DNA from: Membranipora membranacea
Lineage: Eukaryota > Bryozoa > Gymnolaemata > Cheilostomatida > Membraniporidae
NCBI GenBank assembly: GCA_914767715.1
Contig: OU612067.1
Coordinates: forward strand, 23,472,162-23,536,161
Length of the DNA: 64,000 bases
Reading direction: 5' to 3'
Part shown: one piece after another, positions 400-64,000 of the stretch
Layout: each line of letters opens with the position of its first letter
How positions within the stretch are numbered: the first letter of the stretch is position 1
Position numbers and translations under genes: made by a program
Notes under the pieces: model-generated
Told to the model about the DNA's origin: nothing
Seen by the model: only the letters and a program-made list of their open reading frames with translations
Database searches by the model: none

Positions 400-2970
400 T
401 GGTTGCGAGGCACTGCGCATGCGGATTGGTGAGTCGCGGCGGGATGTGTGCACTGTGCTCGCTGTCTACCGGGTGCCCTCGGGCTCTGTGGGGGCTTTTC
501 TGGGGGATTTAGTTCTGATTTTGCCCACTCTCCCCTCGAACTCACATGTTGTTGGTGACATCAATATTGATTTAAATCCAGAAAATTATTTGGACTCAGT
601 TTCAGAAAACTAGAGCGAGTTGATTCAAAGCTAATGTTTTTATAACCTTATTCAATCGCAACAAGAATTGGCGAAACCAAAATAGTATTTTAGATCACAT
701 TATTGTTAAAGATTCAAGTCGTGCACTCTAGATTTTGACATTTCAGATCATAAGCCGGTGTGTGCATCCTTTGTTTACAAAAAGCGCAGCCATAATTTTA
801 ACAAAAATCCTTCGCCAATGAACATAACGAAAGCAAATTATGTGTTATTACAAGAAATTATACAGCAACATAATTGGTCCCCAATTACAGAAATATCTGA
901 CACCAACACAGCTTTTAAACTTTTCATTGAAAAACTAAGCTCATGTGTTGATGATGCGAGCAACAAAATTAGTGCCAGAAAGCATCAACGTTCTACTTTC
1001 AAGAAGCCTTGGATGACTAAGCAATTATTTACACTTACAAAAGAACGTACTAAGCTTCACAAAATGAGCAAATTACAACCATTCAATGGTGAATTACAAA
1101 TGCGGTATAGGAAATTCAGAAATCACGTAACAAACTGCGTAAACATAGCAAGGAAAGAGCATTACAAAGCTCAGTATGATAAGCGTTGTTGGAATATCAA
1201 TGAAAAACGGAGATTTGTCATGAGTTTTTTTGAAAATGATACCAATGGTTCAGATGAGAAAATTTATCTGCGACATGATGGTGATCAGAGCATTTCCGTA
1301 GCTGATAAATTTAATGATTACTTTATCGATGTTGGTACTAATCTGGCAGAAAACCTTCCAACCACTGCAACCAAATTTACACAATATTCTCCTTAAATTG
1401 ATAATGCTTTTGCAGCTGAATTTTCTTTCACTGAAATTGAGACCGCTGCTACTCTTAAAATAATTGATAGCTTCTCCAATAAGAAAGCTAAAGGACCTGA
1501 TAGAATACCAATGCAAGCTTTTAAAGATAATAAATTAACCCTAGCACTACTGTTATCATACTTAGCCGACCTGATGATAAAACCCTCGATTTTCCCAGAC
1601 TGCTTAAAAATTGCTCGTGTGAAACCACTTTTTAAAAAGTGAGATAAAACTAGATGCAATAGTTTCAGACCCATTTCAATTATAATTTTGACATCGAAAG
1701 TTTTAGAAAAACTCCTTTCAATGCAAATCAGAGAGTATCTGGAGTGCAAAACTTTACTCACAAATTACCAATTTGGCTTTAGATCAAAGCGCAGTACAAC
1801 TGACGCAATTAATATTATAATGGAACAGCTTTACAAAATTTTCAATGATAGAGGCATCACCCAGGGTGTGTTTTTAGATTTCTCAAAAGCTTTTGATACA
1901 ATGAATCATGGCATTCTCATCAGTAAACTGAATTTTTTTGGAATTTCCTCTCCCTCTTGTCGACTTTTAGAAAACTATCTTTTAAACAGAAAACAATTTG
2001 TCTTGGTTAACAATGTTGAGTCAGGGTTATTGCAAGTCAAGATTGGTGTTCCCCAGGGTTCGGTTCTCAGGCCACTTTTATTTTTAATTTATATTAGCGG
2101 CCTTTTAAATGCAGCATCTGATCTAATTTATATACTTTTTGCTGATGATACAAACATTTTTAGTACTGAACCTGAAGTTATGAAAAGAACTTTACCTTTG
2201 ATTAATGAATGGTGTATCACCAACCGTCTTGTTATTAACTATGAGAAAACCTTTCAAGTCCTTTTTAAAGCCCCAAAACAAAATTTTTAACCCTGAGGAA
2301 TTCAAGCTCGAATTCGGGAACTCTATTTTAAAAGAAAAAGGAACCACCAAATTTTTAGGACTTGAGTTAGACTCCAACCTAACTTTCGATGAGCATTTGA
2401 AAAGCCTTAAAAAGAAATTAAATTTAACTCTGATGATGATGCAAGCACTCCGTCCAGCCATTGACCAAAAGTCAATGGTTGACATTTACAACTCTTTTTA
2501 TCCTCATTTGATATACGGATTAGAGTTCTGGGGGCACGCAAGCGATAGCCAACTATGACCAATACAGACTCTACAAAAAATGCTCTGCGAATCAATAAGG
2601 GAATTGGACCAGGGGGTCACATTTCTAGTCATTATAAAAAACCAACAACAAGCGAGGAGAGAGGTCCTTGTTGAGCAATGGCATATCCTTGTTCAACAAG
2701 TACCTTTTGGGAGTTTGGACGGGGTCAGGGTGCGATCTCACAGTTGGGCAGGCGGGGCGTCTCTGGTCGTGCGATGGATAGCGGGTACTGTGGGCATGTT
2801 TTGTTTGGGCTTTTCATGATGTTTGTGTGGTGTTTTTGTAATTAGTTGGAGGGTTGGCCGTCACTCTAGTCACAGACTATCTGGCTGACTCATGCTTTTA
2901 TTTACTTTCTTTGAACATTTATTTCTTATAAATTACAACGTTTCTTTATAGCAAAACACAAAAAAAAAAT
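400..2970 (+). mobile_element. Degenerate non-LTR (LINE) retrotransposon, Jockey/CR1-like
   Basis: Contains the tail of an endonuclease domain (VVGDINIDL near 550; ISDHKPV near 742), the linker and a reverse transcriptase, and ends in an A-rich stretch at about 2950-2970. It begins where repeat copy 1 stops matching, so it looks inserted into or beside that repeat. The 5' part of the endonuclease is missing, as usual for 5'-truncated LINEs. Family-level assignment (Jockey/CR1/L2 group) rests on the RT motif style only. Confidence 0.85.
541..2590 (+). pseudogene. Broken endonuclease/reverse transcriptase ORF of the LINE
   Basis: Reverse transcriptase signatures appear in order: FRPIS near 1668, DFSKAFDT near 1877, GVPQGSVL near 2045, FADDT near 2137 with the catalytic Asp pair, and KFLGLELD near 2347. 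The frame is interrupted by TAA at 1394-1396 and by TGA at 1640-1642, which replaces the first residue of the usual GDK motif. A frameshift near 2250-2290 moves the thumb/C-terminal part (2291-2558) into another frame. The element is therefore dead as it stands; the ADD catalytic motif itself is intact. Confidence 0.9.
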
Positions 2971-18689: not shown

Positions 18690-19255
18690 TCAAGCTATTC
18701 GATTGAGCAGTTTTACACATAATGAGCGAAAACAGTGTTTACGGCAGTTTACACGGTAGGCTGGCACTCTGTATCTACCAGATGGGAGTTGTTCTAGCGT
18801 TATGACAGTGTCTTTGCCCGAAGCGAACATTCTCAGGCATTTAGTTTTGAAGAACTTATCGAATATATCGTCTATGGTTGTAACTTCAAGCCTGCCTTTG
18901 CTTAGTCTACGTGCTGTGTTGATGAGGTGATTGTACTGGTTCTTAATATCAGATGAGAGGTGTCCGTATATAATACATAGGTGATATTGTAGGACGCTTT
19001 CGAGAAATGAGGTGTATGCCAGCTTAATGGTAGTTGTCTTGACATTCATAAAGGCTAGCTGCTTCATGATGAATAGTCGTTTGTTAGCTTTGCTGATGAT
19101 GTTTTTGGTGTTCGTATTGAAGTTAAGCTTATGATTGAGTGTGGTGCCAAGATATTTGTATTCATCTACTCGTTCGATGGCGGAGTTGTTGATCATGATG
19201 GGTGGAGGGTCAGGATCATTGCGTATGTATTTATTGTCTGCCTGATTTGCACACG
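18690..19255 (-). mobile_element. Non-LTR retrotransposon fragment: C-terminus of a reverse transcriptase
   Basis: The minus strand reads VDEYKYLGTTLNHKLNFNTN, then ISKANKRLFIMKQL, then LPSGRYRVPAYRVNCRKHCF, then LCVKLLN and a stop. The EYKYLG start and the RYRVP..R...CFRSLCVKLLN end are hallmarks of CR1/L2-type RT C-termini. About 170 residues stay open, but the catalytic palm is missing upstream, so it is a 5'-truncated insertion. It is a different lineage or copy from the element at 0.4-3.0 kb. Confidence 0.85.
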
Positions 19256-19616
19256 AGCATAATTATGTACCATAGATAAGAAATTACTAAGGAAAGTTTT
19301 TAATTTAGTTGTTAAAGACAACTCCTTGATCATATCATACATAATTTTCTAGAGCGATGCCCTCAAATGCAAGTTCCATACTCTAGTAGCAAGTTCCTTT
19401 ATTGACAAAGTATATGCATCCTTTTCTCGCAACATTTCCTGTTTGTGATAGCAAGTAAATCAATAAAAACCTAGAGCATTTCTTGTAAACATAAAATCGT
19501 AAATAATTTTAGATTTGATCCAGATGAACCAATTCATATGGACTAACCAAGGCCGTCGCCACAGGTGAAAATGAATCCATATGATGTTAAAATATGTTTG
19601 TAAAAATATTGATTTG

Positions 19617-24350: not shown

Positions 24351-24375
24351 TAACCTCTATTTGCATATGATTGTA

Positions 24376-24485
24376 GCCTACATGTCTATGAGAAATGAAG
24401 TAACCGGTTCACTGCTGATACGATGCCTTGTCACTACACTACTTAAACATGCCTGTCACAGAGATCTCTTCAGTCTCTTTGAAAT
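24376..24485 (+). CDS. Caspase p10 exon (duplicate copy), first part
   Basis: After ATATGATTGTAG the frame reads YMSMRNEVTGSLLIRCLVTT, then LLKHACHRDLFSLFEI, then GTGAGT. It equals the exon at 59410-59519 with silent changes only in what I compared. YMSMRN aligns with the caspase YYSWRN segment that carries the Arg of the S1 pocket. No upstream p20 exon is present on this strand, so this is a fragment or an exon recruited by an unseen transcript. Confidence 0.75.
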
Positions 24486-24935
24486 CGTGAGTGAGACTTT
24501 ATCATAAACTGTTATTTTCTGGAATTGAAGAAATATACGAAAGTGAAGTACATTACACGGCGCCAAAATATTATGAATATAGTTTCGTTGCGCAATGATT
24601 TTACTGGCGTTGCAAGGTTATTTTATTTCTAAAATATAACTCATAATAATATACTTGCGATCATAATTGACTCCTAATGGTTGTTAACGACCGACCGAGT
24701 GATGGTATATTTCCCCAACAATTTATGAACCACATAATCTGGGGGGGGGGGGGAATTAGTTAAGATGAATCCCATATCTTATTTGACCATGACCACCTAG
24801 AATTTTTCTCAAACTTGTTTGTTTGGACCGCTAACAAAGTAACAAGGGAGGGACTTGTCTTAGTCATGAAGATCCAACAAATGTGAAATATCATATTCAC
24901 AAATATACTATTGAGACACTACTGTGTGTTGCAGG

Positions 24936-25078
24936 TACAGGACAGAGTAAGCGGAGAGAGTAAATCATTAGCAGAGAAATATCCTAATAGCTGTTCAGGG
25001 CAGACAGCTGTACCATTTAAAACATTGACAAAGGGAAGAAAGCTGTATCTGTTCCCTGGGTTCAACCCACGTCGCTAA
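24936..25078 (+). CDS. Caspase p10 terminal exon (duplicate copy)
   Basis: After GTGTGTTGCAG the frame reads VQDRVSGESKSLAEKYPNSC, then SGQTAVPFKTLTKGRKLYLF, then PGFNPRR and TAA. It aligns with the end of caspase p10 (RVN..VA..F....F..KKQIP...S.LTKELYF). Only about three residue differences from the copy at 58774-58917 (G/R, N/D, Q/K). AATAAA follows at 25430-25435. The reading frame has survived, although the gene's catalytic half is absent here. Confidence 0.75.
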
Positions 25079-25694
25079 ACACATATACCCTGCTACTGAA
25101 CACTAATATAGATAGGACTTATAGGTATACGATCAATTGAGATGTTACCACACTTTATGTTGTGTCCCTTATTCACTGGGACTTTTTATCATTATCAAAG
25201 GCATATATCTAACCATCCATGTTGAAGTAAGCCCACCATGCGGTTCTGTTCAAACATGCCTAACACTTTTAGTTAGAGTATTCTTCTCAAAAACTGGCAC
25301 AGTTTGGTTTTGTGTAAGCCTGAGAATACCGAAAGAAATTATCACAGCTGTTTGCATACTACACTATCCTCATCACCCATATTTGATTTAAACTATAATT
25401 ATATATTTTATATTATTCAAAATAGTGTAAATAAACTTTTCCTGTGAAAGAATTGTCAAACACATAGATGTGGAAGTGAAAAAATTGGCGCTTACTAAAC
25501 TTCACCATTATGAAATGTGCAGCTGAGTCATCTAGAGTTACACCCTGCTAGTGGTTAGACTGTAATAATCATGTATAGATAAGCTCCATACACTGCTAAT
25601 GTCTGTCTAATCCTAACTCATAGTGGTGCCTGCTACAGATCTCATACAGCCTGGAGCTGCATAGTTACGAGTTACATCCTTAGTCTTATAAAGA

Positions 25695-32073: not shown

Positions 32074-35000
32074 GTGGGTCTAATTGATAGTATCTAATGA
32101 TGCAGTTTAACAGTGAATAATCAAGAACCAGAAAAACTAAAGGTGGAGCTAAGCCCACCTCTTGTGAAGTCTAGGCATATGGGCTGCATAAAGATTGAAT
32201 CAGGAGAGAGTGATGACTAGGACAGGTCTGGCTTGGTTGCCGGTGTAGGCTGTAGCTTTGCAAACCAGCAACTGGGTGGTCAGCACACTAGTAACAGACT
32301 ATCTGACCAGTATGCTGACCGGTACGTTCACCAGTACGCTGACCTGTACGCTGACCAGTACGCTGACCAGTACGCTGACCTGTACGCTGTCCAGTACGCT
32401 GACCAGTACGCTGACCGGTACGCTGACCAGTACGCTGACCAGTACGCTCACCAGTACGCTGACCAGTACGCTGACCAGTACGCTCACCAGTACGCTCACC
32501 AGTACGCTCACCAGTGCGCTCACCAGTACGCTCACCAGTTCGCTCACCAGTACGCTCACCAGTACGCTCACCAGTACGCTCACCAGTACGCTCACCAGTA
32601 CGCTCACCAGTACGCTCACCAGTACGCTCACCAGTACGCTCACCAGTGCGCTCACCAGTACGCTCACCAGTACGCTCACCAGTACGCTCACCAGTACGCT
32701 CACCAGTACGCTCACCAGTACGCTCACCAGTACGCTCACCAGTACGCTCACCAGTACGCTGACCAGTACGCTGACCACGTCTTTCAAGCTCAGTTTTTTA
32801 TGTTCCATTTTTTGTATTCATTTATGCTAACCCAAATCATAAAAAAAACTAACAAAAAAATAGTTGTTTTACTCGATTAAGAAAAGTCTTAATTACAATG
32901 CCTCCGTCCAAGAGCACTTATCCAAGCATATATGCTACCACCAAGCAAATTTTGATTATAAGAAATTGAAGAGATAAGAAATGGAAGGTCAGATGTCACT
33001 TTTAAGTAATTGTTCTGAAACTGAACTATTTCTCTACTTTTCTTTTTGCAGTTTGCGGTGGTGATATTGGAGATGAGACCAGTGGTTCTATCTCGAGTCC
33101 AGGATATCCTGGTAACTACCCAATCAACAGAACATGTGTGTGGACTATACGCGTACCTGCTGGTAATAACATACATGTACACTTTGTTGGTGTGGATTTA
33201 GAAGCTCATTCTAAATGCAGATAGGACTAACTTGAGGTAATGAAGTTTTCCACAGCTATTTATGAGGTTTCCCATAGTCATTTATGAAGTTTTCCACAGT
33301 CATTCATGAGGTTTTCCACAGTCATTCATGAGGTTTTTCAACCCAATTTATGGGGGGATGGGTTTTTTTGCAAGGATTGAAGTTTCACTTTGTATTCACA
33401 GATCATGTTAGGTTAGCTCATATTTGTACTCTGCATTGGATACACTGATTCATTTTGATTAATAAGTTACAGCGCAGATAATTTACAGAATTTCTCACTG
33501 CCAAAGAAACTATGATCCTCAATTGTTTCTACCAAGCCACAGCACCAATGATCAGTGCTAAAGGATGATCATAAAATATTATTTACTGTAAGTGAATTAT
33601 GGCTGCATTGCTAATATAATCTTACTAATTTTATTGTTGTCTCCCCTGTTGATAGTTCAGGACGGGTTTGAGAGAGACAGACTCGCTTATACAGAGATAC
33701 TGTAACAATACTACACCAGATAACATCATAGTCGAAGGAAATGAGCTCTACATCAAATTCAGCTCAGATATCAGCCTCCAACATAACGGGTTCATGGTCA
33801 CCTGGAATGCTGTCCCATCTGGTAAAAAGCTAAGTTTTGCATGTTATAGACTGGTCATACATCACAGGATGGCATTTATCCAACTGTTTGGTTGCAAGTG
33901 TCTTTAACAAAGAGCAGTAGCAGTATGATTTGGTGATTACATATATGCGGTATGGAACTCTATCAAGTTGAAGGATATATTTGTGGAAATTTGCCTGCAA
34001 TTTTAGAAGTTAAGTTTTACATATCTTAACCCTTTATTATCATCCTGTTTACATTACAGCACCCAATTGTGGAGGAAACCTCAATTTGACGGATGGAATT
34101 CTCATCTCTCCAAACTATCCTAATCACTACGATCACAACGGTGACTGCGTGTGGGTTATCTCGATCCCTGTCAATGAGAGAATTGCTCTTAACTTCACTG
34201 ACTTTGCTATGGAATCGTCCGCTACTTGTGCTTTTCATTATATTGAGGTGTAAACACTGTCTTTCCCACATTGATTCACCAAATTTAGTTTTAGGATATT
34301 TTGAGAGATTGACCAGTGTCGTGCGATGTTTACTAGTGTTCATTAAAGAGAAAGTTTTCGATAGGATAAGCAAATATTTAGGTCCTCCCAAAACTAAACT
34401 GCCATGATTTGTTATGAGCATTGAGTTTTCTAATCAGAGAATTAATTTATTATGATCCAATGTATCTAGGTATTCTGTCAAAATAAATAGCTATGTTAAA
34501 AAGTCTTGATCGATATGGCCTTTCTTTTCTTAGTCTTAATTTGCCAAATTGTCTGCATAGTTTGCAAAGCTCTGTTCCTTCTCTGAGCCCCAAACCTAGA
34601 CCAAAGCCAAGATCAAGTAAGGCATGGTTCATAGTTCTATGTTTGTTTTCTAGGTACATGATGGTACTGCTGATACATCGCCACAATTTGGTAAGTTCTG
34701 TGGAACCTCCTTCCCTGCAATGATCACCAGCACTGGACCAAACTTGTATGTCAGATTCCATTCAGACTCCAGTGTGAACAACCGAGGGTTTAGAGCTACC
34801 TGGACTGTTGGTGAGTAATTTCATTCAATAAACCGGCAAGGGGGAACTTCCCACATAAAAACTCACCGCTGTTACGATTTTTGGGGCCTATTCATATAAA
34901 ACTTAGCTGCAAGTGTTACAATTCTTCATGAATGTACAATCAGACAACGATGTACTGTGAATTCAAGTTGGTGGATTTTGTTCCATCTTTATTGTACAAC

Positions 35001-58409: not shown

Positions 58410-58415
58410 TTTATT
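58410..58415 (-). terminator. Poly(A) signal of the Roc-COR-caspase gene
   Basis: AATAAA on the minus strand, about 360 bases after the stop codon, in the part of the 3' UTR that is shared with the duplicate at 25430-25435. Confidence 0.65.
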
Positions 58416-58773: not shown

Positions 58774-58917
58774 TTAGCGACGTGGGTTGAAACCAGGGAA
58801 CAGATACAGCTTTCTTCCCTTTGTTAATGTTTTAAATGGTACAGCTGTCTTCCCTGAACAGCTATCAGGATATTTCTCTGCTAATGATTTACTCTCTCGG
58901 CTTACTCTGTCCTGTAC
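58774..58917 (-). CDS. Caspase p10, terminal exon
   Basis: Acceptor CTTTGTATTGCAG, then VQDRVSRESKSLAEKYPDSC, SGKTAVPFKTLTKGRKLYLF, PGFNPRR and TAA at 58776-58774. It corresponds to the caspase end with RVN..VA, KKQIP and LTKELYF. Duplicated on the plus strand at 24.9-25.1 kb. Confidence 0.92.
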   Translation of the reverse strand, partial: VQDRVSRESKSLAEKYPDSCSGKTAVPFKTLTKGRKLYLFPGFNPRR

Positions 58918-61900
58918 CTGCAATACAAAGTAGTAGCTTGTAGAACTATTGTGAATATAATAATTCACTTTGATGAGCTCTGATTATCCATGACTAACGC
59001 CTAGTTTGATACCAAGATATTTTCCGGTGTGTCGTGCTAAGTTTGAATAACTTGCCTCTGTAACTTACCAATAACAACAAGAATCAAAAATGTCTCGCTT
59101 AGGCGCTATAAATAGTTAACATTGTCATACTGGAGAGGGGAATTGTCCACACTGCTGATTCGGATTGAATTTAACAGACGTGAGTGACCCAAACTAACCG
59201 CCTGCTCATGTCATTCATAATATTGATTGGGAAAAAATACCATAGTTTATCACATATGATCGTCGTCATCAGCAGTAAGCGGAGACGATAAGGTAGATCA
59301 CGGGTTTTTTTTGTTTTGTTATGTCGTAACTTCCTCTAGCGTCAGAACTAATATCACATATCTTTGGGAAAGAGTGAGCAAGTTAGTTAGTTAGTTAGAG
59401 TCCACTCACAATTTCAAAGAGACTAAAGAGATCTCTGTGACAGGCATGTTTAAGCAGTGTAGTGACAAGGCATCGTATCAGCAGTGAACCAGTTACTTCA
59501 TTTCTCATAGACATATAGGCTACAATCATATGCAAACACTGTGTAAATCTAGTTGTATACATTCAAGAGGGAATAAGATGGCAATCAATGCCGCGATGTT
59601 ATAAACGTTAAATATACACTTTAATATATAAAACATGCCCTAAGATTATTCATTGTCGAATAATGTTCTTTGTGGGTGTGGTATCGAGCAAATAAACAGT
59701 GGTTATCCCCCTTGACATTAAACAAAGTATACTAACTGGCTCAGACATTTATCTTAGTACTCACTCTTGTTTTGTATTTGCATTGTCTATTATTTCTTAC
59801 CTTGTCAATATGTATATATATTCTGTTTTATTCCAGTAATGCTTAGAGTGACAATCAACACTTGTCATTGTGTAACAAACCTTGACATTAGTGTTAATAC
59901 AATTTTATGGAGGAAGCAAGGTTTTGTTTTGCCAGTTTTGCAGTTAAGCAAATAAAAACAATCAAAATAAATATTCAGAATACTTATTTCTGTGTAATGT
60001 TTATTTAATATCGATCTAAGGAGGATTTCTGGGATATCGGAGTTTGTTGATAGTTTTGCATCGAGGCTAAAAACGGATATAATCTCGGAAACTAAATATC
60101 GATCTAAGGAGGATTTCTGGAATATCAGAGTTTGTTGATAGTTTTTGCATCGAGGCTGTACCAGAGTCAATACCCAATCGAGTTATATGTTCATATAATC
60201 TCAAACAAGTAGTTATATTAATATTTGTGCACTATAAGTTTTTATAGTTGCTCGTAAATATTTTAGTTCTAAAATATTAGCCAATTACAAGACAGTAATA
60301 AACACCTGCTATAAGTTTCCTTAGCCAGGTAAAGCAAGTCATACACAAAATAGGAAGGATATAACATGGGATTAGTACGTTGACCTTGTCTGCGAGGAAT
60401 AAGTACTACATTATAATGGCAAAAATGATCTTGACTTCCTGACTCACATTCAAAGCTAGATTTGATCACCATTAGGTCCTCCGTATTGAGGTGGTCTATT
60501 TCTAGTGGTTGACTTCGATGTGATGGTTGCTCTACTTCTGAGGCAGCTGCTTGTATTGGCTTGTATATCTTTGGCTTCCATTGATCATCAGTAGTCGACT
60601 GTTTTGCGGCACCAGCCTTTCCGAGATCTCTCTCAACTAATGAGCAGTAAATTTAAATATTGTGATGTGTGATGAATAGACCAGTCAATTGCATCAAAAC
60701 CCAATTGAACTTGGAGCTATGTTACCAAAATCAATGGGAAAACAGCCCCGAGTTATATTACTTGCCACAAATAACGACTTCAGGGTAGGCTCTTTCCGGG
60801 GAAATTTCATATGATATAATATAAATTAACTGGTAATTTTTCCCAATATGATATGGACCAGCATTAATTCAGCACCAGATATCATCATTGAAATCTTGAG
60901 CAATTTTACATCCATACCTCCAGAGCAGGCTTGAACAACAATGACCTTGGGTTTGCCAGCCATGTTTGGAAAATTTGAAGAAGAGAGCAGGCTGTAAATG
61001 TCCTTTAGCTTGACGCCAACTTGATCTGAGGCCAGGATAACATCGTCTTCACATCCATGAGTCATCAGACAGAGAAAGAACATGCCAAAGTCCTTGTGGT
61101 CAGCACGTTTGGTCTCGTCTTGCACTGCTTTGAGCATTTCCTATAAATTGAAACGTTCTGGAGTCACTAGCAAGTAAGTTAAAAATTTGACAAATCTATT
61201 TACCTGAATCATATTTCATATCATTCGTCTTTTTTTCCATGGCAGCAAGAAACCTTATCAAAGTAGTTGGTTCCATTGCTTTTTTATCTTGTAAAACTTT
61301 ACTCACCTCTGCAGTCACATCCTCAACAATATCCGCCAGCTCAAAATCGAGTGACTTCAGCATGTACTTCAGATTCTTCACATCCATGTCTGATCCTTTT
61401 CGTCTCATCTGTAGAGCTCCTCTACCATTAAAGTTCTCTATGTTGATTATTAGAGCTCTGCCCCTTCTACCTCTACTCATCTTATATATCTGTAAAACAA
61501 GGAGGGCAAGAGAGAGATAAGTAGAGATAGTGCACGCTACTGCATAGAGTATAATGTATAAACTATAGAGGTGAAAAATAATAGTGTTGTACACCAGGGT
61601 CGTAGTTTAGCAACAATGGTATGGGATGTGGAAATCCTTGAGGGTGCGAAGTAAAGGGTATTGTAAGCTCTTAAGGCTCCAAGGTGTTTTAATGATATAA
61701 GTAGCATAGGAAAGTCCCAAATAAGCTGATACTGACACGGAATATTCGATTATGGCATTTTAAGGCCACTCCATTCAGCATTCTAGGGGAGGCGGAGAGC
61801 CCCAGCCTCCGCTAGAACTACGGGTCTGCACACTCTCAAAGTAACTGGGTTCTACACTAATAACAAATTGTGAAGCCCATTGAATACTTTTACCAGACTA

Positions 61901-64000
61901 GTTTTGTTGAACAGTTCCTTTATCTCTGATTTCTCTGTTGGAGCTGGGCGTGGTCTGATCTCATGTAGATGTGTGTCTTCTGTAGAAGGTGAGAGATAAC
62001 CTCCACCATCCTCAGATATAACACTGTCTGAGCGTCCTCTGGTCAAAGTTGCCTGCTCTGGTTCATTGTACTCCGTTGCTGAAACACAGCTTACCTCAGC
62101 TTGAGGCTGCAAATCTTCATTCTCTTCTTCACCTGGAAATCAAAATAATTAGACACGTACTGACTTGTTCTAGAAGAGTGGAAAATTCAGTCTATAAATC
62201 TCAGCCATTCCACAGTTAATATCGGGGTATGTGCCTAATCATTCAAGTCATATAAGAAAGTGATGTTGACAATTGAAATGCTTATTGAGGTAAACTCACT
62301 AGAGCTGTCCGGCACTGAATTAGTTGAGACATATTCCTCAAGCTGTGATATTCCTGTTTTAGTGATGCTAAAACCTGTAAAAAATAACAAAAAAAACACA
62401 CAATTATACAATATTATGCATGTAAAAAAGTAGATTGTGAATTGTAAAACATTCATGTGCAATTTTATAGTAACATTGTCTTTTAGAAGTATATTAATTC
62501 ACTCACAGGGAAATCCGAAGGGTTTTGGGACAACGGATCCAGCCACTTTATCACATCGGCTTGTCTCGTCTCCGGTGTAGGCTGTGAGGCGAGAATTGAG
62601 GCGCTCATAGCTGTAGTGTGATTGGTTAACTTTCTTGAACCATTTGGGATTGACCAGAGTTGTTGGTAACTTTTGTTGAGTCAGCAGACAGTGAGAGCAG
62701 TAGAAGACATGTTCATAACGGACTCCTTTCCACACAGATTCTAGTTCAGATGTGAGCTGCTTCGTTGAATCTAACAGGCTCTTCCATGCATCACAGACTC
62801 TCTTAGGTGGTGTAAGAACTATCAGTGACACCTGTTTCTTGTTCTGGTCATGTAACAGATATCTCATTATTCCATTATCTTCTTGTACTTGAGCGCCGTT
62901 GCTACCTGCTTCAACTGTATTGGCTGGATTGATGTGTATGTCTAGAAACCCTGCAGTAATCAGGTTAAAGATGTACCCAGGTACCGACACACCGTTGAGA
63001 TACAGATCGATTTTCAGTGGAAATAGCTTTGGGCTAGGTTTAGCTGCAGATATGATTTCACTGCTGAAATAAGGAATGATGAACTTCATGCTGTCATCTT
63101 CTCTCCCTATGGGCCCGCAAATCAGGTGGAATGTTTTCAGAAGTGTTACGCCCACCTCAGCTGGCAGCTCTGATTCAGATTTGAGCAGATTGTGAAGCAG
63201 GGCAGCATCGATGACCCCTGTTGCTTTGAAATCCTCCACCATTTTCACATACTCTCGTTTGTCAACATTTCTGTCATAGAATCGGTAGGGCACAAAGACC
63301 TCAATACGATCATCCCATGTTTGGTCAACCCGATGATCATACAGTATCCCTATGAGAGAGACAAGAACATCAGGTCGATGGAATATATATTCACACAGCT
63401 TGTCATTGTCTTGATACCACATTATTCTTCCTATTTCATGAATGTATTGTAGAATATATCGTTTTCTGCTCTTACGGAAACCTTTAACAATGTCAGTAAC
63501 CTTAATAAAAGGCCTGTCTGTCTGCACGGTAAGATCCATGAGTGTCTTATACCAGCTACCTGGTATCTCCGTCATGAGCTGAGAACCGGCTTCGCTAAGG
63601 GCCTTCTTAAGAGAATAAATAACAGTTTCAGTTGAAGTAGCAGATAACTCCAATGCAATATTGATGAGGGGCTTAGATTTGTCACTGAAACTTGTCATAG
63701 AAAAGAACGGGCTTGTAGGGGAACCAGCACTCTCTTCTGCCTCTATTATCTGGAGGCGCAGTTTTTCTGCTGTTGCGATAAGCTGCTGCTTTCTTATATT
63801 AAGCTGCTCTTCAGTAAGCTTATCAGTATGCGTGAGAACTAGCACTGGTTGACCAAGGTTAGGACGTGCTAAGTAGACGTGAGATATCCATCTCATACAA
63901 AGATCTTGTGTTGCAGCATCCTCTCCTTTATCAGTCACCAAACTGTCAAACTCTGCTATATCTATGACAAGAAGCGGGACAGACTGCGTTTTAAATGTCA
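58774..64000 (-). CDS. Roc-COR-caspase fusion protein (3' part; 5' end outside the window)
   Basis: Eight minus-strand exons (beyond 64000 to 62507; 62374-62300; 62132-61894; 61489-61307; 61140-60918; 60636-60448; 59519-59410; 58917-58774) join with fully consistent phases and encode about 840 residues. Domains in order: the C-terminal part of a Roc GTPase (LLVIDIAEFD in G3 position; VLTHTDK as G4), COR (PGSWYKTL, QYIHEIGRIMWY), a polar linker of about 100 residues, caspase p20 (YKM.RGRRGRALIINIENF, RRKGSDMD, MTHG, VVQACSGV) and p10 (SMRNE, RVSRESKSLAEKYP, LTKGRKLYLFPG). Roc-COR proteins are dimeric G proteins; caspases become active when dimerised, so a GTP-regulated protease is a reasonable hypothesis. 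An LRR block upstream, as in other Roco proteins, would lie outside the window. Could two genes be fused by mis-assembly? The shared splice phases and lack of promoter or stop between COR and p20 argue against it. Confidence 0.9.
59410..59519 (-). CDS. Caspase p10, second exon
   Basis: Acceptor GCATATGATTGTAG, then YMSMRNEVTGSLLIRCLVTT, LLKHACHRDLFSLFEI and GTGAGT. SYMSMRNEVTGSLLIRCL aligns without gaps to GYYSWRNPGSGSWFIQAL: the S1 Arg is kept, while the two Trp and one Tyr that shape S2 to S4 become Met, Leu and Met. Confidence 0.9.
60009..60165. repeat. Two copies of a 70-88 bp direct repeat in a caspase intron
   Basis: ATATCGATCTAAGGAGGATT ... TTTGTTGATAGTTTTGCATC plus GAGGCT occurs at 60009-60077 and 60097-60165. 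It lies in the 928-base intron between the two p10 exons at 60448 and 59519. Confidence 0.92.
60448..60636 (-). CDS. Caspase inter-subunit linker and start of p10
   Basis: Acceptor TACTGCTCATTAG, then ERDLGKAGAAKQSTTDDQWK, PKIYKPIQAAASEVEQPSHR, SQPLEIDHLNTEDLMVIKSS, FE and T|GTGAGT. QACSG-VERDLG matches QACRG...LD.G of caspases, and NTEDLMVIKSSFE aligns with EADFLYAYSTVPG. STTDD in the linker is a candidate maturation site. Phases (2 in, 1 out) are exact. Confidence 0.88.
60918..61140 (-). CDS. Caspase p20, second exon with catalytic His and Cys
   Basis: Acceptor ATTTATAG, then EMLKAVQDETKRADHKDFGM, FFLCLMTHGCEDDVILASDQ, VGVKLKDIYSLLSSSN, AGKPKVIVVQACSG and G|GTATGG. Joined to the previous exon it gives DVTAEEMLKAV, which fits the caspase DLT..EI...M segment. 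Catalytic His is in THG (usually SHG), catalytic Cys in QACSG (usually QACRG). Confidence 0.92.
61307..61489 (-). CDS. Caspase p20, first exon
   Basis: Acceptor TTGTTTTACAG, then 61 codons: IYKMSRGRRGRALIINIENF, NGRGALQMRRKGSDMDVKNL, KYMLKSLDFELADIVEDVTA, then GAG|GTGAGT. YKM followed by R/P-x-G-x-ALIIN and the R-x-G-(S/T)-D-x-D segment are caspase hallmarks; the Arg of RRKGSD corresponds to the S1-pocket Arg of caspase-3 (Arg64). The longer open frame past the GTGAGT is intron. Confidence 0.92.
61894..62132 (-). CDS. Linker exon 2 of the Roc-COR-caspase gene
   Basis: 239 bases reading EEENEDLQPQAEVSCVSATE, YNEPEQATLTRGRSDSVISE, DGGGYLSPSTEDTHLHEIRP, then EIKELFNKTSL and GTAAAAG. Acidic and Ser-rich, with several Asp-containing stretches (VISEDG, STEDT) that could serve as caspase cleavage sites separating the protease from the GTPase; that is inference. 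Confidence 0.8.
62300..62374 (-). CDS. Linker exon 1 of the Roc-COR-caspase gene
   Basis: 75 bases between TTTTTTACAG and A|GTGAGT, reading FSITKTGISQLEEYVSTNSV then PDSS. It joins in phase on both sides. No domain. Confidence 0.8.
62507..64000 (-). CDS. Roc (C-terminal part) and COR domains, large exon
   Basis: The frame is open from the window edge to the donor TTTCCCT|GTGAGT. It begins TFKTQSVPLLVIDIAEFDS, where other Roc domains have D-x-A-G in G3; here Glu replaces Gly. Then ARPNLGQPVLVLTHTDKL supplies the G4-like THTDK. COR follows: SLKKALSEAGSQLMTEIPGS, WYKTLMDL, the KRYILQYIHEIGRIMWYQD helix and HRPDVLVSLIGILYDHRV. The C-terminal COR lobe runs to about VPGYIFNLITAGFLDIHIN, followed by a conserved-looking tail (PPKRVCDAWKSLLDSTKQL, FYCSHCLLTQQKLPTTLVNP). 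G1 (P-loop) and Switch I are beyond the edge. Confidence 0.88.

What the first reader, a model, noticed from the sequence alone, without database searches (positions are those of the whole stretch)
58774..64000. A Roco-type GTPase module fused to a complete caspase
Eight exons with mutually consistent phases carry Roc, COR, linker, p20 and p10 on one strand. Known animal Roco proteins carry kinase (LRRK1/2, DAPK1) or no enzyme (MFHAS1) next to Roc-COR; caspases are normally led by CARD, DED or short prodomains. A GTP-dependent dimeriser coupled to a protease that activates by dimerisation would be a self-contained death or immune switch, parallel in logic to an apoptosome or inflammasome but in one chain. 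I do not know it as a described system.
Basis: partly seen in the sequence, partly recalled or inferred. Interest (0 to 1): 0.92.

Follow-up and report, generated by a model that had tools for sequence, protein, structure and literature searches.

The report
LRR–Roco GTPase fused to caspase
A gene from an animal, probably a bryozoan, joins a likely sensor, a GTP-binding switch and a cell-death protease in one protein, and the same genome carries over a hundred loci arranged the same way, which looks like an undescribed family of self-contained immune or cell-death receptors.

Summary
Eight minus-strand exons at 64000-58774 (introns GT-AG, compatible phases) encode half of Roc, COR, linker, p20, p10 and a stop. 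The caspase is unambiguous (Pfam 1.4e-39). Just past the window edge the same exon continues into an intact P-loop and an LRR: LRR-Roc-COR-caspase. The join is real: Watersipora, a bryozoan, has similar annotated proteins, a tandem paralog keeps all eight exons and splice sites, and 112 of 116 Roc-COR exons found in this genome have a caspase match within 4 kb downstream on the same strand, against 0 of 116 in each other orientation. Two caspase classes occur. GTPase and catalytic motifs are kept in nearly all loci inspected; the LRR part diverges fastest. I read this as a greatly expanded family of single-chain sensor-switch-protease receptors. Function and GTP-controlled dimerisation are inference; no transcript was seen. 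My paper searches listed no Roc-COR-caspase. Nearest precedents: amphioxus LRR-caspase hybrids, placozoan Rocos with CARD or death domains, sea-anemone LRR-Roc-COR-TIR.

The parts
62507..64000 (-). Exon 1 (part in window): C-terminal half of Roc and COR, residues 1-497; contains the G4 motif THTDK. It continues beyond 64000 to the P-loop GKSGAGKTS, DFGGHK and an LRR.
62300..62374 (-). Exon 2: start of linker, PCFSI...LEEYV, similar in Watersipora relatives
61894..62132 (-). Exon 3: acidic linker ending in the EIKELF stretch just before p20
61307..61489 (-). Exon 4: p20 first part (RGRALIIN, RKGSDMD)
60918..61140 (-). Exon 5: p20 second part with the catalytic dyad motifs (MTHG and QACSG)
60448..60636 (-). 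Exon 6: intersubunit linker and start of p10
59410..59519 (-). Exon 7: p10 (SMRN, KHACHRD)
58774..58917 (-). Exon 8: p10 end and stop; AATAAA at 58415
24377..24486 (+). Partial second p10 copy, exon-7-like; with flanks 95% identical DNA to the main gene
24935..25078 (+). Partial second p10 copy, exon-8-like; with its 3' flank 86.5% identical DNA over 614 bp; no p20 or Roc-COR found upstream in the window by tblastn at E<=10

Best explanation
This is one gene for a Roco-family protein with caspase output, LRR-Roc-COR-linker-caspase, a member of a lineage-expanded family (112 loci with this arrangement found in this genome, a lower bound). Proposed mechanism: the LRRs bind a ligand, perhaps microbial or damage-derived (inferred). 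This shifts the nucleotide state and the monomer-dimer balance of Roc-COR (inferred from other Rocos). Two caspase domains are thereby brought together and activated by proximity, as initiator caspases are (recalled, inferred here), then cleave substrates and perhaps their own acidic linkers (inferred). Shown: architecture, intact GTPase and catalytic motifs in the loci inspected, conserved order of domains, constraint on switch and protease, expansion. Not shown: transcript, GTP binding, protease activity, ligand, cell death. Confidence about 0.97 in the fused gene, about 0.55 in the sensor-switch-protease mechanism.
For: Gene model and domains. Dyad motifs and the recalled Asp-pocket residues (R of R.GS..D, Q of QAC, R of S.R) are present in the window gene and in the Watersipora proteins P0013-P0015. 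The linker 491-606 itself matches the COR-caspase linker of P0014 (1.7e-8), P0013 (1e-5) and P0015 (2.8e-5) in a search of 21 proteins. The tandem paralog L011 keeps all eight exons and the splice sites; pN/pS is 0.30 in Roc-COR, 0.43 in the caspase and 1.19 in the 41-codon LRR part. Nineteen of 20 caspase loci read on C1 (20 of 134 asked for) have a Roc-COR exon upstream; the P-loop is kept in 18 of those 19, DFGG and THxD in 19 of 19. Of 116 Roc-COR exons, 112 are followed by a caspase match; 0 of 116 in each wrong orientation; shifted control mean 4.15, maximum 10.
Against: No RNA evidence. In the one full-length Watersipora model, P0015, the P-loop is degenerate (GKSSSRKK), so GTP binding is not universal. 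Roc and COR score below Pfam cut-offs in the window gene, and COR is not significant on its own in the PDB profile match. In CtRoco GTP favours the monomer (PMC6337361 passages). The residue after the catalytic Cys is Ser, Ala or Gln in the sequences seen, and activity is untested. The LRR excess of replacements could partly reflect relaxed constraint or faster change overall: synonymous change is also higher there (0.162 against 0.063 in Roc-COR, p 0.09), and the ratio is 1.19 for one pair and 0.81 across the C1 loci, not clearly above 1. Not all loci need be intact genes: 2 of 87 and 21 of 65 Roc-COR matches hold one or two stops, some perhaps at exon edges (not examined).
Confidence: 0.65

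Rival explanations
1. Two neighbouring genes, a Roco and a caspase, are wrongly joined in the model.
For: No transcript was seen, so no cDNA supports the exon 2-3 and 3-4 splices.
Against: Same strand and order at 112 of 116 Roc-COR exons found in the genome; similar linker and kept splice sites; Watersipora proteins P0013-P0015 carry the end of COR or more and a caspase in one annotated chain, by alignment (Pfam COR-A only in P0015, 25.2 bits against a cut-off of 35.3). The Roc-COR reading frames of 11 of 11 relatives checked run to the same PL..PC point, where the window gene has its intron.
Confidence: 0.03
2. The proteins are signalling platforms in which the caspase fold is mainly structural or regulatory (a pseudoprotease), or Roc-COR is a pseudo-GTPase.
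For: P0015 has lost the P-loop; two caspase homologues in this genome, L001 and L002, lack a normal QACxG.
Against: H and C motifs of the dyad are kept in the window gene, in L011, in L004, L006 and 5 of 5 C1 loci read by eye (the automatic pattern had missed the C1 ones), and in 4 of 4 class-B sequences aligned. The P-loop is kept in 18 of 19 C1 loci.
Confidence: 0.15
3. A real fused receptor-protease, but with a developmental or colony-biology role (tissue turnover, self/non-self recognition) rather than defence against microbes.
For: If the source is a bryozoan, it is a colonial animal (recalled). A large, LRR-diverse, clustered family would fit either role.
Against: Nothing here separates the two.
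Confidence: 0.2

Closest known systems
MFHAS1 (LRR-Roc-COR Roco protein)
   Same: LRR-Roc-COR order; Watersipora relatives without a caspase in their models (P0011, P0012) are named MFHAS1 homologues by NCBI.
   Different: MFHAS1 consists only of LRR and RocCOR (PMC6337361 passage). A review says only deuterostomes have MFHAS1 (PMC4104024 passage).
Trichoplax ROCO proteins with CARD or death domains
   Same: Animal Roc-COR proteins joined to death-fold domains (PMC4104024 passage).
   Different: The passage seen names adaptor domains, repeats and ATPase domains, not a protease.
Amphioxus LRRs-caspase and TNFR-caspase hybrids
   Same: Sensor fused directly to a caspase with a QACxG motif, proposed as a direct link from recognition to apoptosis (PMC2575513 passages).
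   Different: No Roc is mentioned in the main text (0 occurrences of 'roc'); its supplements were not seen.
Sea-anemone LRR-Roc-COR-TIR (NG1) and kinase-Roc-COR-death-TIR (NG3)
   Same: Lineage-specific Roc-COR genes (COR at low threshold in NG1) with immune-type output domains (PMC5094078 passages).
   Different: Output is TIR, not a caspase.
Brown-algal ROCO family
   Same: Expanded LRR-Roc-COR family with single-LRR exons, proposed as immune receptors (PMC11378527 passages).
   Different: No other domain combination than LRR-ROC-COR is reported there ('caspase' 0 occurrences).
Inflammasome/apoptosome (NLR or Apaf-1 plus caspase)
   Same: Would work like it: a nucleotide switch brings initiator caspases together (analogy, recalled).
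   Different: One polypeptide, a GTPase of the Roc type instead of a STAND ATPase; no NACHT or NB-ARC hit.

Membership tests
Roco family | Roc followed by COR in one chain | tested here: met
   Roc and COR-A each in 12 of 19 family members at E<=0.01; best PDB profile matches are proteins recalled as bacterial Rocos, carried by the Roc part. In the window gene alone both score below Pfam cut-off.
Roco family | GTP-binding motifs in Roc | tested here: met
   GKSGAGKTS, DFGGHK and THTDK in the window gene with its extension; degenerate in Watersipora P0015.
Roco family | Nucleotide binding and dimerisation through COR | not testable with these tools
MFHAS1 subfamily | LRR-Roc-COR and no enzyme domain | tested here: not met
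   A C-terminal caspase is present.
Caspase family (Peptidase_C14) | Complete p20 and p10 with His-Cys dyad | tested here: met
   Pfam 1.4e-39; MTHG and QACSG; stop shortly after the LYLFPG end.
Caspase family (Peptidase_C14) | P1-Asp pocket residues (recalled: R of R.GS..D, Q of QAC, R of S.R) | tested here: met
   Present in the window gene and the aligned Watersipora relatives; specificity itself not tested.
Caspase family (Peptidase_C14) | Proteolytic activity on dimerisation | not testable with these tools
   Needs purified protein.
NLR / STAND receptors | NACHT or NB-ARC ATPase | tested here: not met
   No such Pfam match in the 884-residue model at E<=1 or in the extended exon 1 at E<=0.1. 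LRR exons further upstream were not scanned with Pfam.

The most novel reading that the evidence does not exclude
The lineage has its own NLR-scale repertoire: at least 112 germline loci in which a diversifying LRR sensor, a Roc-COR GTPase switch and one of two divergent caspase classes form a single polypeptide, so that recognition triggers proteolysis with no adaptor, inflammasome or apoptosome.
Probability: 0.5. Interest if true: 0.93.

Novelty: new variant of a known kind. Interest (0 to 1): 0.87.

Why it matters
My searches found no Roco GTPase with a protease as its output. If the mechanism holds, it is a one-chain inflammasome equivalent and a clean system for asking how the nucleotide state of Roc-COR controls an output domain, a question central to LRRK2 biology: cleavage of a reporter substrate would read Roc-COR state directly. 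It would also show that an animal lineage built a large receptor repertoire on a GTPase other than the NLR ATPase.

Tried and rejected
Led nowhere: Rfam on the window (0 matches at gathering threshold); viral-contig scan (no relative); genome-contig scan with one protein (no relative); structure prediction (switched off), so no fold search was made. A protein search with a permuted caspase-then-Roc-COR alignment, meant to favour fusions in other phyla, returned 14 proteins; the only named ones outside Watersipora were two CARD caspases of sturgeon and paddlefish. The tool needs shared 5-residue words and scored only 7995 candidates, so this is weak evidence for absence elsewhere.

Considered and rejected: mis-joined genes. 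Also the idea that Roc-COR exons without a Pfam C14 call (51 of 116) lack a caspase. Five such loci were read: tblastn with the known caspases saw one weak hit (E 0.003, L032), but by eye all five show a diverged caspase-like exon with an HG motif downstream, and four of five also show the QACQ exon. In the two joined and scanned (L032, L035) Pfam C14 scores 1.2e-11 and 2.8e-11. The class-B profile's best PDB match is a caspase at 1.6e-4, and 27 of 29 chains listed at E<=1 are caspases. A genome search with the L032 sequence then covered 48 of 116 Roc-COR exons. Left unanswered: whether death-domain or Roc Pfam families sit elsewhere in the genome (not answered; TIR and kinase were not asked), and what precedes the 76 of 141 class-A and 48 of 96 class-B caspase loci without a scored Roc-COR upstream.

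Limits of the counts: genome searches score only the best candidates (140 of 515, 86 of 222, 105 of 192, 65 of 252, 139 of 484), so counts are lower bounds. Hits were merged before counting: 145 to 134, plus 7 places picked; 87 plus 65 to 116; 150 listed of 152 to 96. The 116 include one C8 place that matched in two halves. 'Within 4 kb' allows an overlap of up to 300 bp.
Full report
What is there. On the minus strand, eight exons from the window's right end to 58774 read as one frame of 884 residues plus stop, with all seven introns GT-AG and compatible phases. Introns are 132 to 928 bp and the coding exons are richer in GC than the introns (0.435 against 0.346). Residues 611-849 are a caspase by Pfam (1.4e-39) and by comparison with solved caspases (best 3.6e-22). 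Both dyad motifs (MTHG, QACSG) are present, as are the residues that I recall as the Asp pocket. Roc-COR is fainter in this one sequence (COR-A 0.0019, below cut-off) but better seen in the family: Roc and COR-A each in 12 of 19 members at E<=0.01, and a profile whose best PDB matches are proteins that I recall as bacterial Rocos (3dpu, 8r4b, 6hlu). That match rests on Roc; the COR stretch alone is not significant there (0.59).

Beyond the window. The genome tool placed the window at C3:23472162-23536161 of a 339 Mb, 18-contig assembly. The next bases show that exon 1 runs on to an intact P-loop, a DFGG motif and an LRR, with two further LRR stretches about 8 and 11 kb upstream of the edge. 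With this extension Roc scores 1e-5, just under its cut-off. The full order is LRR-Roc-COR-caspase.

Is the join real? Four lines say yes. First, Watersipora subatra, a bryozoan, has annotated proteins with the same parts: P0015 (1413 aa; LRR, sub-threshold COR-A and caspase by Pfam), P0014 (853 aa; caspase by Pfam, its first half aligning with the window's Roc-COR exon) and P0013 (531 aa; caspase behind the end of COR by alignment). Second, the linker alone aligns between the window gene and these three proteins (1.7e-8, 1e-5, 2.8e-5); in P0014 and P0013 the alignment runs through the end of exon 3 into the start of exon 4. Third, a paralog about 100 kb away matches all eight exons without an indel, with AG and GT kept at the introns and no stop before the last codon. 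Fourth, the pattern is genome-wide: the union of two searches gives 116 Roc-COR exons. Of these, 65 have a Pfam-type caspase match and 48 a second-class caspase match within 4 kb downstream on the same strand, 112 of 116 with either (one with both). None of 116 has one downstream on the other strand or upstream on either strand. Shifting the caspase positions by 20-200 kb (200 shifts) gives a mean of 4.15 and at most 10. The four without are three on C1 and one on C8. Of 20 C1 caspase loci read directly, 19 have a Roc-COR exon upstream.

Two caspase classes. Class A resembles the window's. In L011, L004, L006 and 5 of 5 C1 loci read by eye it keeps SHG or THG and QACxG. Class B came to light when five Roc-COR loci without a Pfam call were read. 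It is spread over two exons, keeps M[ST]HG and QACQ plus two arginines that I place in the pocket in 4 of 4 aligned sequences, scores Pfam C14 at 1.2e-11 and 2.8e-11 in the two scanned, and as a profile finds mostly caspases in the PDB (best 1.6e-4). Its exon border was judged by eye.

Selection. Between the window gene and the tandem paralog the ratio pN/pS (uncorrected) is 0.30 in Roc-COR and 0.43 in the caspase, but 1.19 in the 41-codon LRR part of exon 1; the linker has 4 replacements and no synonymous change. The excess of replacements in the LRR part is strong (p 4e-12 against Roc-COR), while its synonymous rate is also somewhat higher (p 0.09). Over 15 C1 loci the ratios are 0.81 for the LRR part and 0.29 for Roc-COR; pairs there are not independent, one of the 15 lacks the LRR part, and the LRR alignment includes some sequence upstream of the LRR that may be intron. 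A partial p10 copy in the window differs from the main gene by 7 synonymous and 3 replacement changes on 58 and 191 sites (p 0.0018). So the switch and protease are constrained while the sensor end changes fast, as expected of recognition genes, though relaxed constraint is not excluded. Not every locus need be intact: 2 of 87 and 21 of 65 Roc-COR matches hold one or two stops, some perhaps at exon edges.

How it may work. Caspases of the initiator type fire when brought together (recalled). Roc-COR proteins cycle between monomer and dimer with their nucleotide. The simplest reading is that ligand binding to the LRRs shifts that cycle and so gathers caspase domains. The sign is open: for CtRoco the nucleotide-free form is the dimer and the GTP form is mainly monomeric (PMC6337361 passages), while another review describes a model with a GTP-bound active dimer (PMC4104024 passages). 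The acidic linker of the Watersipora members holds D/E-x-S-D stretches that could be self-cleavage sites (seen; inference). Watersipora P0015 has lost its P-loop, so some members may be pseudo-GTPases.

What it is akin to. By membership it is a Roco protein and carries a true caspase domain. It is not an MFHAS1 in the strict sense, because an enzyme domain is present. It works, by hypothesis, like an inflammasome in one chain, but no NACHT or NB-ARC was found. Ten paper searches (PMC open-licence library only) listed no paper that by title or abstract describes a Roc-COR-caspase protein, and none appeared in the passages of the nine papers that I opened; no paper was read whole. The nearest described things are amphioxus LRRs-caspase and TNFR-caspase hybrids (PMC2575513), Trichoplax Rocos with CARD or death domains (PMC4104024), anemone LRR-Roc-COR-TIR (PMC5094078) and the expanded brown-algal LRR-Roc-COR family (PMC11378527).

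Source organism. The only named proteins with this architecture or with the closest Roc-COR are from Watersipora, so the animal is probably a bryozoan. The assembly size agrees with what I recall for Membranipora membranacea, but that is recall and was not checked. The relatives P0001-P0010 and P0017-P0019 come from ENA, JGI and one other source without an organism name.

Verdict. The finding is confirmed and larger than reported: one gene in a family of at least 112 loci of this arrangement. I call it a new variant of a known kind, because Roco proteins with output domains and sensor-caspase hybrids both exist, and score it high because the combination, its scale and its testability are unexpected.

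Noticed in passing
window 24360-25478, + strand: Partial, recent copy of the gene's end: p10 exons 7 and 8 and 3' flank, 86-95% identical DNA, without p20 or Roc-COR found upstream in the window.
   Followed up: partly
window 16751-11193, - strand: Two LRR exons (15135-15004 and 11327-11193) and two upstream open stretches (16751-16476, 15981-15742) look like the LRR end of another gene whose Roc-COR was not found in the window.
   Followed up: partly
window about 33.6-54.7 kb, + strand (extent by eye): Gene with many CUB domains; 7 of 7 open stretches scanned between 34.0 and 49.9 kb match CUB above cut-off.
   Followed up: partly
window 1643-2287, + strand: Reverse transcriptase of a retrotransposon (RVT_1 6.6e-35); further possible pieces at 710-1393 (+) and 18693-19262 (-) had no Pfam match at E<=0.01.
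   Followed up: no
window 32306-32777: 39 copies of a 12-bp tandem repeat, open in several frames.
   Followed up: no
genome C9 0.2-2.5 Mb, C8 18-24 Mb, C11 0.6-1.5 Mb, and class B on C11 0.15-0.21 Mb: Further caspase matches in groups without a scored Roc-COR upstream; what they are joined to is unknown.
   Followed up: no
COR end of the family, window exon 1-2 residues 434-498: Invariant C-x-H-C plus two further invariant cysteines (C434, H436, C437, C482, C498 in 16 aligned sequences) suggest a metal-binding knuckle after COR.
   Followed up: no
L001 (C4:18270899) and L002 (C3:17229650): Caspase homologues with an altered QACxG motif: FDSSTG in L001, where the Cys is gone, and IDCNN in L002; L001 at least is a probable pseudo-caspase.
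   Followed up: no
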